From Geobacter sp. SVR (GTDB lineage Bacteria > Desulfobacterota > Desulfuromonadia > Geobacterales > Pseudopelobacteraceae), in contig NZ_AP024469.1 of the NCBI RefSeq assembly GCF_016865365.1, positions 3,378,501 through 3,442,500 of the forward strand: 64,000 bases of DNA, given 5' to 3'. This document shows, one piece after another, positions 31,758 through 38,188 of this stretch. The notes below the pieces were generated by a model, which was not told the DNA's origin, did not search any database, and saw only the letters and a list, made by a program, of their open reading frames with translations. Position numbers and translations under genes: made by a program. How positions within the stretch are numbered: position 1 is the first letter of the stretch; every line of letters begins with the position of its first letter.

Positions 31758-34106
31758 ATGGCATCACTCTACATCATCGGCAGCGGCCCCGGTGCGCTCG
31801 AACACCTGACCGAGGCTGCACGGCAGGCCATTGCAGACTCAAGCACCATTATCGGATATGACAGCTACATCGAGCTGATCAGGCCGCTCTTGGAGGGAAA
31901 ACAGATCGTCTCCACCGGCATGATGCGTGAAGTGGAGCGCTGTCGTGAGGCGATCCGCAGGGCATGCGCAGGAGAGACGGTCGCGCTGGTGTCGGGGGGC
32001 GATTCCGGCATCTACGGTATGGCGGGCCTGGTGTTCGAACTGCTTGAAAACGCCGCAGAGGGGAACCGGGCCGCTCCTCGCCCCGATGTCCGGGTAATAC
32101 CCGGCATCTCTGCCATCCAGGCTGCGGCGTCGCTTTTGGGCGCCCCTTTGATGCATGATTTCGCCGTGATCTCCCTCTCGGACCTGCTGACCCCCTGGGA
32201 GCTGATCAGGAGCAGACTGGAAGCGGCTGCCAGGGCAGACATGGTGATCGTGATCTTCAATCCCCGCAGCAAGAGCCGGGTCACCCAGATCGAGGAGGCG
32301 CGCCGCATCGCGCTTGCCGCGCGCCCTGCCGAAACTCCCGTCGGCATCGTGCGCAACGCCAGCCGTCCCGACCAGTCGGTCACTGTCACCACCCTTGGTC
32401 AGATGCTGTCTCACGACATCGACATGTCCACCATCGTGATCATCGGCAACGCCAGCAGCTTTATCGATTGCCAGGGCCGGATGGTCACCCCGCGCGGCTA
32501 TGCCCGCAAGCCGGAGTTCGGGGACCGGGGACCAGTGACCGGGGATCGGCACAAGGAGCCGGGACATGCAAAACCACGCCCTGATGCAGGCGCTCTCATG
32601 TTCTGCGGCACCGCCTCGGATGTCGGCAAATCGATCCTCACCGCCGGGTTCTGCCGTTTCCTGGTCAAGCGCGGCATTACGGTTGCCCCCTTCAAATCCC
32701 AGAACATGTCGCTCAATTCCTTCGTGACCCCCGAGGGGGGCGAGATCGGCCGGGCCCAGGCCGTTCAGGCCCAGGCCTGCTGCATCGATCCCCACACCGA
32801 TATGAATCCGGTGCTGCTCAAGCCCAACTCCGACACCGGCAGCCAGGTGATCGTGCAGGGGCGTCCCGTGGGCTCCATGAGCGTCAGGGAGTATGACACC
32901 TACAAGCCGGAGGCATTCGCCCGGGTCGCGGAAAGCTTCGAACGCCTGCGCCAAGACCACCAGTTCGTTGTGATCGAAGGGGCCGGCAGCATCGCCGAGA
33001 TCAACCTCAGGCACAACGACATCGCCAACATGAAGGTGGCCCTGATGGCTGGTTGCCCGGTCATCCTGATCGCCGACATCGACCGGGGGGGGGTCTTCGC
33101 CCAGATCATCGGCACCATCGAACTGCTGGAGCCCGAAGAGAGGGCGCTCATCGCCGGTGTGATCATCAACAAGTTCCGCGGCGATGCCTCCATTCTCGAC
33201 GCGGGCATCGAGTTCATCCGGAACAGGACCGGTGTGCCGGTGCTGGGCGTGCTGCCCTGGCTGCCCCGCCTGGACCTGCCGGCAGAGGACAGCCTTGCGC
33301 TCGGCCGCAGTTTCGGTCCGACAGAGGGGGCCCGTGAAAAGCATATCCGCATCGGCATTCTGAAGCTGCCGCGCATCTCCAACTTCACCGATTTCGATCC
33401 CTTCCGGCACGACGACGATGTGTCGGTCGGCTACGCGGAAAGACCGGAACAGATGGAGGGGCTGGATCTATTGATCATACCCGGCACCAAATCGACCATT
33501 CCCGATCTGAACTACCTGCGCGAAAAAGGCTTCCAGAGTGCCATCACCGCGTTTAACGGCCGCATCGTCGGTATTTGCGGAGGCTACCAGATGCTGGGCC
33601 TGCGGGTGCTCGACCCCGAACGGATCGAATCCGCCGTGACGGAGGCAGCCGGCCTGGGACTGTTGCCGGTGGAGACCGAGATGCTGCCCGACAAGGAGAC
33701 CCACCAGGCCCTGGCCCGCCTGGAGCCGGCCGGCCGGTCGGCAACGGGGGATCCCGGCGGGATCATCAGCGGATACGAGATCCACATGGGGCGGACAACC
33801 TGCCTGGAGGCGGCGCGCCCCTTTGCCCGCATCTTTCAGCGCGGAAAAAACGGCATCGATGTGCTGGACGGGTGTATTTCCGAGGATGGCAGGATTGTTG
33901 GCACCTACCTCCACGGACTGTTCGACAACACCCCCTTCCGTACTTCGTACCTGAACCTCATCCGGCAGGAAAAAGGGCTGCCGGTCCGTCAGCAGGAGCA
34001 ACCGGATGCGGCCGATCCCTTTGATCGGCTCTGCGCTCATATGGAACAGCATCTCGACATGCAGCGGATTCTCTCCATCTGCGGGCTGGACAGTGGTCGC
34101 GCCTGA
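31758..34106 (+). CDS. Fused precorrin-3B C17-methyltransferase and cobyric acid synthase (CobJ-CobQ)
   Basis: A 782-residue fusion. Residues 1-~250 are CobJ/CbiH, a SAM-dependent ring-contraction methyltransferase (YIIGSGPGALEHLT, VSGGDSGIYGM, VIFNPRSKSR). Residues ~278-782 are CobQ/CbiP, which amidates cobyrinate: an N-terminal dethiobiotin-synthetase-like domain (GTASDVGKSILTAGF, PFKSQNMSLNS) and a glutamine amidotransferase-like domain with GICGGYQMLG (nucleophile Cys) and YLHGLFDN. The two enzymes act at separate steps and are normally separate proteins. The linker (~253-277) is coded by a sequence resembling an intergenic repeat. The ATG at 31758 has GAGGA upstream. Confidence 0.9.
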   Translation: MASLYIIGSGPGALEHLTEAARQAIADSSTIIGYDSYIELIRPLLEGKQIVSTGMMREVERCREAIRRACAGETVALVSGGDSGIYGMAGLVFELLENAAEGNRAAPRPDVRVIPGISAIQAAASLLGAPLMHDFAVISLSDLLTPWELIRSRLEAAARADMVIVIFNPRSKSRVTQIEEARRIALAARPAETPVGIVRNASRPDQSVTVTTLGQMLSHDIDMSTIVIIGNASSFIDCQGRMVTPRGYARKPEFGDRGPVTGDRHKEPGHAKPRPDAGALMFCGTASDVGKSILTAGFCRFLVKRGITVAPFKSQNMSLNSFVTPEGGEIGRAQAVQAQACCIDPHTDMNPVLLKPNSDTGSQVIVQGRPVGSMSVREYDTYKPEAFARVAESFERLRQDHQFVVIEGAGSIAEINLRHNDIANMKVALMAGCPVILIADIDRGGVFAQIIGTIELLEPEERALIAGVIINKFRGDASILDAGIEFIRNRTGVPVLGVLPWLPRLDLPAEDSLALGRSFGPTEGAREKHIRIGILKLPRISNFTDFDPFRHDDDVSVGYAERPEQMEGLDLLIIPGTKSTIPDLNYLREKGFQSAITAFNGRIVGICGGYQMLGLRVLDPERIESAVTEAAGLGLLPVETEMLPDKETHQALARLEPAGRSATGDPGGIISGYEIHMGRTTCLEAARPFARIFQRGKNGIDVLDGCISEDGRIVGTYLHGLFDNTPFRTSYLNLIRQEKGLPVRQQEQPDAADPFDRLCAHMEQHLDMQRILSICGLDSGRA
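32519..32549. repeat. Repeat-like GC-rich sequence coding the CobJ-CobQ linker
   Basis: CGGGGACCGGGGACCAGT at 32519-32536 matches 17 of 18 bases of the minus strand at 63581-63598, which belongs to an intergenic inverted repeat. Here it is read in frame as GDRGPVTGDR, joining two enzymes. Confidence 0.6.
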
Positions 34107-35064
34107 TCCGGCCGTCATCGTCCCGGCACTGCTGCTGGACCTGATGCTGGGAGATCCCCGCTGGCTGCCGCATCCGGTGGTCTTGATCGGCCGAACGATC
34201 ACCTTTCTGGAAGACCGACTGAGGGCCCTCATCAGTAACGAGCGGCTGGCCGGCGTACTGCTCCTGCTGCTGACCGTGACCGGCACCGTCGCGGTCACCT
34301 GGCTGGCGCTTGTGGGGGCTGCCTCGCTTTCTCCGCTGGCAGGAACAGCGGCAGCCGTGGCAATTTCCTACACCTGCCTGGCCGCACGCTCCCTGCACCG
34401 CGAATCGGCTGTGGTGGCCCGGGCCCTCTTGGCCGGGGATATCCAGGCGGCACGTCGCAATCTGTCCTACATTGTTGGCCGTGACACCGCCGACCTCGAC
34501 GAGCCCGAAATCTGGCGCGCCCTGGTGGAGACGGTGGCGGAAAACACCTGCGACGGCGTCATTGCGCCGCTGTTCTGGCTATGCCTGGGAGGCCCTTTAG
34601 CCGGCATGGCCTTCAAGGCGGTCAGCACCCTCGACTCGATGGTCGGCTACCGCAACGAGCGCTATCTGCACTTCGGCTGGGCTTCGGCCCGCATGGACGA
34701 TCTGGCGAACTTCATCCCGGCCCGGCTGACCGCCCTGCTGATGATCGTCGTTGCCCCGCTGACAGGCCTTTCCCTGCGCAATGCGCTGAGGGTGACGCTG
34801 CGTGACCGTTTGAAACATCCCTCCCCCAACAGCGCCCATCCCGAAGCGGCGGCAGCCGGCGCACTCGGCGTGCGGCTGGGTGGCCCCTCCCGCTACGGCG
34901 GCAAGCCATCCTGGAAGGAGTACATCGGCGACCCGCACAAGCCGTTGAACCGGGATGCCTATGCGGCCATGATCAGACTGATGTACGCCACAACGATCTT
35001 CATGACGGCCATTTTCCTGATTCCGGCCCTGTTGTTGAGAGGTTTCGATGTCACTCTCCCATGA
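34093..35064 (+). CDS. cbiB: Adenosylcobinamide-phosphate synthase CbiB/CobD
   Basis: A 323-residue integral membrane protein that attaches aminopropanol phosphate to adenosylcobyric acid. Typical blocks are LLLDLMLGDPRWLPHPV at the start, the AENTCDGVIAPLFW stretch, AFKAVSTLDSMVGY, and DDLANFIPARLTALL. A GTG at 34093 gives a family-length protein starting VVAPDPAVIVPALLLDL; the frame is open further upstream but only inside cobQ. It overlaps the cobJ-cobQ end by 14 bases and the cobD start by 17, a tightly coupled operon. Confidence 0.93.
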   Translation: MVAPDPAVIVPALLLDLMLGDPRWLPHPVVLIGRTITFLEDRLRALISNERLAGVLLLLLTVTGTVAVTWLALVGAASLSPLAGTAAAVAISYTCLAARSLHRESAVVARALLAGDIQAARRNLSYIVGRDTADLDEPEIWRALVETVAENTCDGVIAPLFWLCLGGPLAGMAFKAVSTLDSMVGYRNERYLHFGWASARMDDLANFIPARLTALLMIVVAPLTGLSLRNALRVTLRDRLKHPSPNSAHPEAAAAGALGVRLGGPSRYGGKPSWKEYIGDPHKPLNRDAYAAMIRLMYATTIFMTAIFLIPALLLRGFDVTLP

Positions 35065-36124
35065 ACATGGCGGCACCATCCTTTCGCTTGCCCGGCAGCT
35101 CGGTGTCGCGCCCGGGGATATCACCGATTTCTCGGCCAGCATCAATCCCCTGGGGCTGTCCGGCATGGTCAGGGATGCCATCGGCAATGCACTGGACAGC
35201 CTGGTGCACTACCCCGACACCAGCTGTTCGGAACTGAAAGAGGCCCTGGCAGCCGCGCATGGCCTGAACAAGGCGCACATCGCCGTGGCCAACGGCTCCA
35301 CGGAACTCATCTACCGACTCCCCGCCATGCTGCCCGGTCGACGCGCCCTGATCGTTTCCCCCTCCTTCAGCGAGTACAGCCATGCCCTGGAACAGCACCG
35401 CTGGGAGGTGCGCCACCTGATCCTCTCAGCACGCAACCATTTCAGCCTCGATCTGGAGCTGCTCGAAGCCTCCCTGGCCCACAGCTGCGATGCCCTGTAC
35501 CTCTGCAACCCCGGCAACCCCAGCGGCATCCTGTATCCGCCGGAGACCATCGAACGTATCTACCGGCTCTGCCGGACCTCCGGCACATTCCTGGTCCTGG
35601 ATGAAGCCTTCATGGACTTCTGCGAGGAGGCATCCGCAAAGGCCATCATCACGGCCGAACGACACGGCCTGATCCTGCGGTCGATGACAAAATTTTTCGG
35701 CTTCCCGGGACTGCGCCTGGGATATGCGATGGCCCATCCCGCCCTGACCGAACAACTGGGACAGCATGGCGGGCCATGGAGTGTCAATACATTGGCACAG
35801 GCAGCCGGCACAGCTGCCTTACGCGATAAGGAATACCGCAGGAGGACGCTGGAATACGTCAAGCAGGAACGCAGCCTTCTGTGCGACCGGCTCTCCCGCT
35901 TCCCGCTGTTGACGGCGTATCCCTCTGCCGCGAACTTCCTGCTGGTGGAACTTTCCGGCGGGCTGAAGGCAGACGGGCTGAAGGAGCGTCTGCTGTCGCA
36001 GCGCATACTGATCCGCAACTGCGCCACCTTCACCGGGCTGGACAACCGTTTTTTCCGGATTGCCGTGCGAACTGCCGAGGAGAACCAGAGGCTGCTGGCC
36101 GGGCTGGAGGAAATTTTTTCCTGA
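35048..36124 (+). CDS. cobD: Threonine-phosphate decarboxylase CobD (PLP enzyme)
   Basis: A 358-residue fold-type I PLP enzyme that makes aminopropanol phosphate from L-threonine phosphate for the cobalamin nucleotide loop. It begins HEHGGTILSLARQLG and contains DFSASINPLG, the LCNPGNPSG aminotransferase motif, LDEAFMDF and the PLP lysine in SMTKFFGFPGLRLGY. It overlaps cbiB by 17 bases and supplies the substrate that CbiB uses. A terminator shared with hgcB follows. Naming follows the Salmonella scheme. Confidence 0.93.
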   Translation: MSLSHEHGGTILSLARQLGVAPGDITDFSASINPLGLSGMVRDAIGNALDSLVHYPDTSCSELKEALAAAHGLNKAHIAVANGSTELIYRLPAMLPGRRALIVSPSFSEYSHALEQHRWEVRHLILSARNHFSLDLELLEASLAHSCDALYLCNPGNPSGILYPPETIERIYRLCRTSGTFLVLDEAFMDFCEEASAKAIITAERHGLILRSMTKFFGFPGLRLGYAMAHPALTEQLGQHGGPWSVNTLAQAAGTAALRDKEYRRRTLEYVKQERSLLCDRLSRFPLLTAYPSAANFLLVELSGGLKADGLKERLLSQRILIRNCATFTGLDNRFFRIAVRTAEENQRLLAGLEEIFS

Positions 36125-36164
36125 ACGAGGCCTGGAGAAGACCTTGGAACAGAGCTGAAAAATG

Positions 36165-36196
36165 AAAAAGGCCGAAGAGACATCTCCGGCCTTTTT
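36165..36196. terminator. Bidirectional terminator between the cob operon and hgcB
   Basis: AAAAAGGCCG (36165-36174) and CGGCCTTTTT (36187-36196) form a symmetrical hairpin with T-runs on both strands. It ends the plus-strand cob transcript and the minus-strand hgcAB transcript. Confidence 0.9.
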
Positions 36197-36236
36197 CGTA
36201 TACATGGTCATGGAGGAAGCCCTCCTCTCCTCAGAA

Positions 36237-36524
36237 TCAGCAGCCTCCGCCCCCCGTTTTTACCAGTTTTCGTTCCCGTAGCCACTCGTTAATCATGCCC
36301 GAGGCGCAGCCGACCCCTGAATCCACGCTGATGGCCTTGACCGGACAGTTGAAGGCGCAGGCCCCGCACTCCATGCAGGCGTCACGGTCGGACAGCGTGA
36401 CCTTTTTCCCATCAGGAGAAAAGACCTGATGGGGACAGACCTGTAGACACCGGCCGCAACCGATGCAGAGCGAGGGATCGAAATCGAGCGTCACGACGTT
36501 TTCAAGATAGCGGAAGCCCTGCAT
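36237..36524 (-). CDS. hgcB: Mercury methylation ferredoxin HgcB
   Basis: A 95-residue ferredoxin with two 4Fe-4S motifs, CIGCGRCLQVCP (20-31) and CMECGACAFNCP (50-61), then the HgcB hallmark GVGCA with Cys73. The start RYLENVVTLDFD is also typical. HgcB is thought to reduce the corrinoid of HgcA and to handle Hg(II) during methylmercury formation. It lies 30 bases after hgcA on the same strand. Known HgcB proteins commonly end in a vicinal Cys pair; here the tail is GGGGC, with a single Cys95 followed directly by TGA. Confidence 0.93.
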   Translation of the reverse strand: MQGFRYLENVVTLDFDPSLCIGCGRCLQVCPHQVFSPDGKKVTLSDRDACMECGACAFNCPVKAISVDSGVGCASGMINEWLRERKLVKTGGGGC

Positions 36525-36554
36525 GTCTCACCTCTTTTTTCATAAACGGCACTC

Positions 36555-37577
36555 TCACATCAGCCTTCCGATCAACAGCAGCCCAATGCTGATCGCAACA
36601 GCACACCCCATGGCAGGCAGGGCCATGCTCATCTCTTTTCTGACGCCGGAACGGGAGGTATAGGGGGAGCAGCCGGTGAAGTTCAGGGTATAAAAAGCAC
36701 TGACTGCCGGCAGTGCCAGGAACAGGGCGGCAGTGACCGCAGCACTCCAGGCTGCTCCGCCGGCCAGGATGTAGAACAGGCAGGTCCAGAGCAGGCCGAT
36801 GACGGCACCTTTGACGGCAAAGCCGGGCCCCGGCAGCCAGGGGAGCAGCAGCGGCCCCAGCACGATGCCGCTCAGCACCGCCCCCAGGTAAGCGAGAAAC
36901 GCCGCCATGGCGGCAGCCGGACCACCCGCCACAAGTCCCGCCAGCAGCGTCACCCCGCCGATGGCGGCAATCGGGCGGAGAGCAAGCACCATCTCCACCG
37001 GAATCAGCACCAGCCGTTCACGGAGCGTGAAGCTCAACCGCCGCATGGCCGCGGTGGTGATCCTGCCGTTATCCAGGTACTCCGGCAGGTCCGAGGCCTT
37101 GATCGCGGCATATTCTACCGAGAATCCGCAGCGCTGCAGCACCTGGTGAGCCGCCACGCCGGGCGCCCCAAGAATCGGCAGGATCAGGCGGCGGTGGCTG
37201 ACGACCCGGGCCAGCCCCGTGGCATCGATCCGACGCACCAGTTCTCCGGTGCCGAAGGTGCCTTTGCCGGCCGCGCACCAGACATTGATGCCATAGGTCT
37301 CCAGCACCAGCAGCCAGACATGCCGCCCCGCCAGAGCCCGGCGAACGATGTCGTAGCTCATCTTGTAATCTGCGGTCACCAGCACCGGCGCGTCGCTGTC
37401 CGGTTGGCCGATGGCATACAGGCCCGGCGGCACCATGAAATTCATCCGGCCGATGCCCCAACGGGCCTTGCAGGCTCCGATGCGGTCAGCCGGGTCCAGT
37501 GTCGTGGAGATTCGCGCTACCGGTCCGGCTGCAGTCGCGAGCCATTCTTGGAAGCCGGGTACCTTTTCGGTGATCAC
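36555..37577 (-). CDS. hgcA: Mercury methylation corrinoid protein HgcA
   Basis: A 340-residue protein. The N-terminal cytosolic corrinoid-binding domain has the cap-helix signature NVWCAAGKGTF, with the cobalt-coordinating Cys101 in N98-K105. The C-terminal half holds about five membrane segments (from ~190), ending with the conserved NFTGCSPYTSRSGV block. HgcA transfers a methyl group from methylcobalamin to Hg(II), with HgcB as electron donor. The start is a GTG at 37577 with a weak ribosome site. A MarR-type gene lies upstream on the same strand, with a putative operator between them. The convergent cob operon makes corrinoid. Confidence 0.95.
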   Translation of the reverse strand: MITEKVPGFQEWLATAAGPVARISTTLDPADRIGACKARWGIGRMNFMVPPGLYAIGQPDSDAPVLVTADYKMSYDIVRRALAGRHVWLLVLETYGINVWCAAGKGTFGTGELVRRIDATGLARVVSHRRLILPILGAPGVAAHQVLQRCGFSVEYAAIKASDLPEYLDNGRITTAAMRRLSFTLRERLVLIPVEMVLALRPIAAIGGVTLLAGLVAGGPAAAMAAFLAYLGAVLSGIVLGPLLLPWLPGPGFAVKGAVIGLLWTCLFYILAGGAAWSAAVTAALFLALPAVSAFYTLNFTGCSPYTSRSGVRKEMSMALPAMGCAVAISIGLLLIGRLM

Positions 37578-37718
37578 TCCGCCGCCGGCGGAGACAGGCG
37601 GGCCTCAGCAGGGCGGCTTGTCCGAGCCGCCGGGAGCCGGCGGGCATGGACCATTCAGCCCCTTCTCACTCGCTGTACGGATACCCATGATTTTCAGAGG
37701 GCCGTTTTGTCCGTTCTT

Positions 37719-37735
37719 TACTTGCAACATGCAAC
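37719..37735 (-). promoter_or_regulatory. Putative MarR operator upstream of hgcA
   Basis: On the minus strand this reads GTTGCATGTTGCAAGTA. It matches the site at 38220-38236 at 14 of 17 positions, as GTTGCA-N3-TGCAAGTA, differing only in the three central bases. It lies in the 170-base gap between the MarR stop and hgcA, about 140 bases before the hgcA start. Confidence 0.6.
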
Positions 37736-37747
37736 CATCCTTCCCGA

Positions 37748-38188
37748 TCATGGACCGCTTGCGGCGCTGCTGGTGAGCGCTTCATTCAGCAATCCCAGCG
37801 ACCTGGTCACCGTCTCGCGCTCAAACGGCGTCAAGGCAGCGAACAGTGCTTCGATCTTTTTTTCCAGGTAAGAGTCGATCCTGACCAATACGTCTTCACC
37901 CGCTTGCGTGAGACTGAGCAGGCTTACCCGCCGGTCACCGGACGAAACCCGGCGCACGATCAGGCCTTTTTGTTCCAGCCCCTTCACCTGGCGGCTGAAG
38001 GTCGTGATATCCAGACCCAGCTCATCCGCCACCCGCTGCATCGCAGGGCTCCCCACCCTGCGCACTTCGGACAGGATGTGGCTTTGGGCCATTGAAAGCT
38101 GCTGGCCGCAGCATTCGTCGCAGCAGGTGGCGTTCAGCAGGCCGAAACGGCGGACAAAAATCTGCAGTTGCTCTTGCATTGATTCCAT
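37748..38188 (-). CDS. Cysteine-rich MarR family transcriptional regulator
   Basis: A 146-residue winged-helix regulator. The recognition region reads SPAMQRVADELGLDITTFSR and the wing has VRRVSSGDRRVSLLSLT, both typical of MarR. Near the N-terminus is CCDECCG (Cys22, 23, 26, 27), a CCxxCC cluster well suited to bind a soft metal or react with thiol stress. The ATG at 38188 has an AAGGAT site; the longer frame runs into the divergent gene and is rejected. It is upstream of hgcA on the same strand and divergent from a metal transporter, with a candidate operator on each side. Confidence 0.9.
   Translation of the reverse strand: MESMQEQLQIFVRRFGLLNATCCDECCGQQLSMAQSHILSEVRRVGSPAMQRVADELGLDITTFSRQVKGLEQKGLIVRRVSSGDRRVSLLSLTQAGEDVLVRIDSYLEKKIEALFAALTPFERETVTRSLGLLNEALTSSAASGP

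What the first reader, a model, noticed from the sequence alone, without database searches (positions are those of the whole stretch)
36237..37577. hgcAB pair: capacity for mercury methylation
The HgcA cap-helix NVWCAAGK, the C-terminal membrane domain, and an adjacent HgcB with two 4Fe-4S motifs and GVGCA are diagnostic. These two proteins are necessary and sufficient markers for anaerobic Hg(II) methylation in known organisms.
Basis: partly seen in the sequence, partly recalled or inferred. Interest (0 to 1): 0.8.

Follow-up and report, generated by a model that had tools for sequence, protein, structure and literature searches.

The report
Mercury-methylation genes hgcAB with selenocysteine
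This is a genuine hgcA–hgcB mercury-methylation gene pair in a Geobacteraceae bacterium, and the HgcA gene is longer than first read because an in-frame UGA near its start almost certainly encodes selenocysteine, a variant already described in the literature but missed by ordinary gene calling.

Summary
The 340-aa ORF passes the curated HgcA model (443 bits, cut-off 275). The 95-aa ORF passes the HgcB model (131 bits, cut-off 99). Scores for CO-dehydrogenase and HgcAB-like fusion models are far below their cut-offs.

The gene most likely starts at ATG 37730 and reads through an in-frame UGA at 37605–37607, giving ...KPPC-Sec-GPP.... In relatives this is a conserved Cys-Sec pair, with a few Cys-Cys versions. 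A SECIS hairpin (loop GGN, 18 nt after the UGA) is present in nearly all UGA forms and broken in the Cys forms. Its pairing far exceeds a synonymous-codon null (94.5% against 61%). The genome carries selA, selB, tRNA-Sec and selD. A tree suggests the Sec form is ancestral in a large Geobacteraceae-centred clade, with several reversions to Cys.

Seleno-HgcA is already published (Haft & Gwadz 2023, cited in PMC11588087; tabulated in PMC13188914), so this is a new member of a known kind. One open oddity remains: in this genome HgcB's second C-terminal Cys codon is also UGA. A hairpin follows, but it misses bSECIS criteria, so I favour a plain stop.

The parts
36555..37730 (-). hgcA, full proposed gene (391 aa with Sec42).
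   Evidence: NF040863 443 bits; homology through the UGA over query residues 1-392 in relatives; GGGAAGGA upstream of ATG 37730; conserved MLQV... start
37605..37607 (-). In-frame UGA read as selenocysteine (PPC-U-GPP)
   Evidence: Aligned with TGC in the Cys forms; TGA in 73 distinct homologous segments; Sec machinery in genome
37577..37593 (-). SECIS hairpin CUCCGCC-GGC-GGCGGAG, loop 18 nt after the UGA
   Evidence: 71 of 73 UGA forms carry a strong model hairpin, Cys forms do not; compensatory changes; synonymous-codon null exceeded
37263..37286 (-). Cap-helix motif NVWCAAGK (Co-ligand Cys, equivalent of Cys93 of P. mercurii)
   Evidence: Direct reading of the sequence
36237..36524 (-). hgcB, dicluster ferredoxin (95 aa to first UGA; 97 aa if that UGA were Sec)
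   Evidence: NF040864 131 bits, cut-off 99
36237..36239 (-). UGA in register with the second C-terminal Cys of HgcB; stop codon, or possibly Sec (...GC-U-F-stop)
   Evidence: Relatives read CCS-stop at this place; follow-up
36212..36225 (-). Hairpin GGAGG-GCUU-CCUCC, loop 16 nt after the hgcB UGA: weak SECIS candidate
   Evidence: -7.0 kcal/mol; misses the -7.5 limit and the GG/GU loop preference
37748..38188 (-). marR-type regulator with Cys motif CCDECC, probably first gene of a marR-hgcA-hgcB operon
   Evidence: PF01047 39 bits; homologue 5' of hgcA in 22 of 71 relatives with enough flank; Cys motif nearly invariant
36164..36197 (.). Hairpin with A/T tracts on both sides: probable bidirectional terminator between hgcB and cobD
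   Evidence: Inverted repeat AAAAAGGCCGGAGAUGUCUCUUCGGCCUUUUU shown; terminator reading inferred

Best explanation
This is a functional-looking hgcAB mercury-methylation locus whose HgcA is a selenoprotein. Ribosomes starting at ATG 37730 decode UGA 37605-37607 as selenocysteine through the SECIS hairpin just downstream, SelB and tRNA-Sec. The product is a membrane corrinoid protein with an N-terminal tail that carries a Cys-Sec pair. HgcA's corrinoid domain carries a methyl group on cobalt, with the cap-helix Cys as lower ligand, and HgcB re-reduces the cobalt. Cys/Sec pairs on the mobile tails of HgcA (N-terminus) and HgcB (C-terminus) most likely capture Hg(II) and pass it to the methyl-cobalt centre and onward. 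Shown here by sequence: family membership, the UGA, the SECIS and the Sec machinery. Taken from the literature: corrinoid chemistry and the proposed role of the HgcB tail. Inferred: the role of the HgcA Cys-Sec tail and actual Hg methylation by this strain.
For: HMM scores over curated cut-offs. UGA read through with homology on both sides in most relatives with hgcA in the same family. CU in 73 distinct segments against CC in five, with further CC forms. SECIS: 71 of 73 UGA forms have the hairpin; the pair at +16/+24 is broken in all five Cys forms. Pairing is 94.5% against 61.1% (sd 1.9) when codons are redrawn synonymously. Compensatory pairs (C-G to U-A, U-A to C-G, G-C to A-U) occur within the stem. 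selA 602.8 bits, selB 353.7, selD 373, tRNA-SeC(tca). The tree suggests Sec is ancestral, with nested Cys reversions. Published: HgcA Sec motif 'CU' (PMC13188914); [quoted passage not shown]
Against: No protein-level evidence of Sec in any HgcA was found. Several HgcA lineages lack an alignable pair, and the Bacteroidota homologues lack the N-terminal tail altogether, so the pair is not universally required. Whether this strain methylates Hg is unknown.
Confidence: 0.93

Rival explanations
1. The UGA is a true stop and HgcA starts at GTG 37577; the upstream sequence is a short separate peptide or leader.
For: A GTG start is available and the downstream ORF alone contains the whole NF040863 domain.
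Against: Cys-form relatives read straight through with TGC at this codon. Codons on both sides vary at third positions while the peptide KPPCUGPP stays. The hairpin 3' of the UGA is conserved beyond codon constraint and lost where the codon is TGC.
Confidence: 0.05
2. HgcB is also a selenoprotein (an addition to the best explanation): the UGA at 36237-36239 replaces the second Cys of the C-terminal pair, giving ...GGGGC-Sec-Phe-stop.
For: Exact register with CCS-stop of relatives including both sister species. Hairpin with loop G at +17. Such a hairpin at this spacing follows only about 1% of TGA-terminated ORFs in the window and none of 74 other HgcB stops. Sec machinery is present.
Against: Hairpin is -7.0 kcal/mol with a GCUU loop, missing the -7.5 limit and the GG/GU preference. 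About 9% of ORF-end TGAs reach -7 under the full spacing range. One genome only. The second Cys is lost in other HgcBs too (F, Y, G, S or stop), including one with TGA-TAG and no hairpin. Single Cys94 or Cys95 mutants are fully active in P. mercurii (PMC7305189), so loss is tolerated.
Confidence: 0.22
3. The native job of this HgcAB pair is not Hg(II) methylation but methylation or handling of another soft metal(loid), with mercury a side substrate.
For: The neighbouring regulator is a Cys-rich MarR, and in other methylators hgcAB is controlled by an arsenic-responsive ArsR (PMC10349881).
Against: No such native substrate has been shown in the papers read; the tested function concerns mercury.
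Confidence: 0.15

Closest known systems
HgcA (NF040863) and HgcB (NF040864) as in Pseudodesulfovibrio mercurii ND132
   Same: Corrinoid domain with NVWCAAGK cap helix, hydrophobic membrane domain, adjacent dicluster ferredoxin with GVGC and C-terminal Cys
   Different: HgcA has a Cys-Sec pair in its N-terminal tail; HgcB here has one C-terminal Cys followed by UGA instead of two Cys
Seleno-HgcA (Haft & Gwadz 2023; listed as motif CU in PMC13188914)
   Same: Same family and same C-U motif
   Different: No difference found; here SECIS covariation, Cys reversions and a probable second origin are documented in addition
Seleno-HgcB (listed as motif GVGU in PMC13188914)
   Same: Same protein family
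   Different: Here GVGC stays Cys; the UGA lies at the C-terminal Cys pair, a place not in that listing, and may be just a stop
CO dehydrogenase/acetyl-CoA synthase corrinoid protein (PF03599; PDB 2h9a gamma subunit)
   Same: Corrinoid-binding domain homology
   Different: Lacks HgcA's membrane domain and cap-helix Cys (family knowledge); score here far under the CFeSP-type model cut-off

Membership tests
HgcA | Curated equivalog score over cut-off | tested here: met
   443.3 bits, cut-off 275
HgcA | Cap-helix N-V/I-W-C-A-A/G-G-K | tested here: met
   NVWCAAGK at 37263-37286
HgcA | C-terminal five-helix membrane domain | tested here: inconclusive
   Long hydrophobic stretches in residues 239-392, helices not resolved one by one; near full-length profile match, 1-324 of 325
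HgcB | Two CxxCxxCxxxCP motifs and curated score over cut-off | tested here: met
   CIGCGRCLQVCP, CMECGACAFNCP; 131.3 bits, cut-off 99
HgcB | Conserved Cys equivalent to Cys73 (GVGC) | tested here: met
   GVGCASG
HgcB | At least one C-terminal Cys | tested here: met
   ...GGGGC before the UGA
Hg methylation capacity | Converts Hg(II) to methylmercury | not testable with these tools
   Needs culture or heterologous assay
Bacterial selenoprotein (HgcA) | In-frame UGA aligned with Cys in homologues | tested here: met
Bacterial selenoprotein (HgcA) | bSECIS: loop 3-9 nt, stem 4-16 bp, G in first two loop positions, spacing 16-37 nt, at most -7.5 kcal/mol | tested here: met
   loop GGC, 7 bp, 18 nt, -11.5 kcal/mol
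Bacterial selenoprotein (HgcA) | Genome has selA, selB, selC, selD | tested here: met
Bacterial selenoprotein (HgcA) | Sec detected in the protein | not testable with these tools
   Needs mass spectrometry or 75Se labelling
Bacterial selenoprotein (HgcB) | bSECIS model, all constraints | tested here: not met
   Hairpin alone -7.0 kcal/mol (limit -7.5), loop GCUU without the usual GG/GU
Bacterial selenoprotein (HgcB) | UGA conserved in other species at this place | tested here: not met
   Both same-genus genomes have CC (L014, L017); one distant TGA-TAG case has no hairpin (L198)

The most novel reading that the evidence does not exclude
Both proteins of this pair carry Sec in their metal-handling tails: HgcA with an N-terminal Cys-Sec and HgcB with a C-terminal Cys-Sec at the pair proposed to capture Hg(II). 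This would be a doubly selenylated mercury methylase, with Sec in HgcB at a site not in the published listing.
Probability: 0.22. Interest if true: 0.65.

Novelty: new member of a known kind. Interest (0 to 1): 0.4.

Why it matters
Methylmercury is a major neurotoxin, and hgcA is the standard gene marker for its producers. In the Geobacteraceae-centred clade sampled here nearly all hgcA genes carry an in-frame UGA that plain gene calling treats as a stop, so naive calls give truncated proteins without the Cys-Sec pair. That segment is a natural candidate for Hg(II) capture and would tie mercury methylation to selenium supply, which is directly testable. Heterologous assays of such an HgcA that start at the called downstream start would be testing a shortened protein.

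Tried and rejected
Rfam scan of the locus found no named SECIS family; its hits look like chance or terminator look-alikes. The tRNA-Sec search (RF01852) gives weak matches in every genome including controls, so only the 77.8-bit hit backed by ARAGORN was used. A link between Cys-form HgcA and loss of Sec machinery was considered and rejected: Cys-form genomes G043 and G045 also have strong tRNA-Sec hits. Sec at GVGC of HgcB was looked for in the phylum sample: none seen among the HgcBs that could be read. 'Stops_inside' flags for HgcB were partly alignments running past the real stop and were not used as counts. The motif call for L090 was a false match and was left out of the Cys forms. Haft & Gwadz 2023 and the 2015 mutagenesis paper are not held, so their content is taken from papers that cite them. 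An attempt to read the SECIS of this genome's own selD as a yardstick did not find the right UGA and was dropped. No structure prediction was run, as it would not settle Sec or metal handling.

Full report
Observation. The longer passes the curated HgcA model with 443 bits (cut-off 275) and the shorter the HgcB model with 131 bits (cut-off 99). Rival models (HgcAB-like fusion 177 of 285 bits, corrinoid CODH gamma subunit 59 of 306 bits) fail. Pfam sees only the corrinoid domain, and the nearest solved structures are corrinoid iron-sulfur protein large subunits.

Correction of the gene start. Read with UGA as a residue, the frame continues upstream through UGA 37605-37607 to ATG 37730. The ATG has GGGAAGGA in front of it and lies 17 nt after the stop of a marR gene. 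An HgcA homologue was found in 47 of 76 genomes of the same family. Most of those matches cover the N-terminal tail and contain one TGA. The residues around it typically read DKPPC-U-GPPTSAGGG; a minority have CC.

SECIS. Seventeen bases in the window, CUCCGCC-GGC-GGCGGAG, form a 7-bp hairpin whose loop begins 18 nt after the UGA. This meets every constraint of the published bacterial SECIS model. Of 73 distinct UGA forms 71 have a strong scoring hairpin; L068 has none and L076 only a weak one by my simple contiguous-stem rule. The Cys forms do not have it, and the pair at +16/+24 is broken in all five. The stem shows two-sided changes. Redrawing codons synonymously from each gene's own usage gives 61.1% paired (maximum 66.6% in 2000 draws) against 94.5% observed, so the pairing is not a by-product of the protein sequence.

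Machinery. The genome has selA (602.8 bits), selB (353.7 with its second piece), selD (373 bits, itself with an in-frame TGA) and a tRNA-SeC with anticodon tca.

Evolution. In a 109-row HgcA tree (quick method, many forks under 80% support), 81 rows form one starred clade with 69 Sec and 10 Cys members, the latter nested in several places. That suits an old Sec with repeated reversion to Cys. Three Desulfohalobiaceae/Desulfosudaceae rows carry CU with a SECIS loop further away (about +24) and sit elsewhere, which suits a second origin or a transfer. In most remaining rows from the phylum sample the tail is Cys-rich without an alignable pair. Bacteroidota homologues lack it.

HgcB. Relatives mostly end in CC plus zero or one residue; here the second Cys codon is TGA, then TTC, then TGA. 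A hairpin GGAGG-GCUU-CCUCC has its loop 16 nt on. It has -7.0 kcal/mol, just misses the -7.5 limit and lacks GG/GU in the loop. Hairpins this strong at this spacing follow about 1% of TGA-terminated ORFs in the window, about 9% if all permitted spacings count, and none of 74 other HgcB stops at this spacing. Other HgcBs have lost the second Cys by substitution or stop. In P. mercurii either Cys alone suffices (PMC7305189). I therefore hold a plain stop more likely and Sec possible (somewhat under one in four).

Mechanism. Established or proposed elsewhere: HgcA methylates via a corrinoid with Cys-Co ligation and SAM has been reported as methyl donor (PMC11588087); the HgcB tail is proposed to bring in Hg(II) (PMC7305189). 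Inferred here: the Cys-Sec pair at the HgcA N-terminus works likewise as a soft-metal ligand on a mobile tail. Neither Sec insertion nor Hg methylation was demonstrated for this organism.

Regulation and surroundings. The 5' neighbour encodes a MarR-type protein with an almost invariant CCDECC motif, present before hgcA in 22 of 71 relatives with enough flank. A Geomonas relative has an ArsR-like ORF instead (by eye). A MarR gene before hgcA has been noted in Geobacter daltonii (PMC10349881). Downstream and convergent lie cobalamin-synthesis genes, but this adjacency is not found in the relatives examined.

Organism.

Novelty. HgcA and HgcB selenoproteins were reported by Haft & Gwadz 2023 (paper not held; cited in PMC11588087 and tabulated in PMC13188914 as CU and GVGU). 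The window is thus a further member. What is added is documentation: SECIS covariation, reversions, a probable second origin and the HgcB C-terminal UGA.

Noticed in passing
window 31758-36124 (+): Cobalamin-synthesis genes (fused tetrapyrrole methylase/cobyric acid synthase, cbiB, threonine-phosphate decarboxylase cobD) converge on hgcAB. Fitting for a corrinoid enzyme, but not found next to hgcAB in the 80 related loci.
   Followed up: partly
window 37748-38188 (-): MarR-type regulator with an almost invariant CCDECC motif, 17 nt before hgcA; seems to replace the ArsR regulator in one branch of the family.
   Followed up: partly
L110, L111, L112: HgcA with CU and a SECIS loop about 24 nt from the UGA in Desulfohalobiaceae/Desulfosudaceae: probable separate origin of the Sec form.
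   Followed up: partly
L230 (G335:C363:1287-1868): HgcB with an in-frame TGA between GVGC and a normal CC end (PPD-U-SDG...SSCC-stop), followed by a 7-bp hairpin: candidate Sec at yet another Cys position of HgcB.
   Followed up: partly
L146, L147, L153 (hgcB ends): Three genomes of one genus end HgcB in GGGGC-TGA, where a relative (L160) has CC-stop; no model hairpin, so probably plain stops.
   Followed up: partly
L190 (G113:C86): HgcB reads SCC-TGA-VVTGQKV-TGA, where a same-genus genome (L214) reads SCCCVVES...SCC-stop: truncation or Sec, hairpin weak.
   Followed up: no
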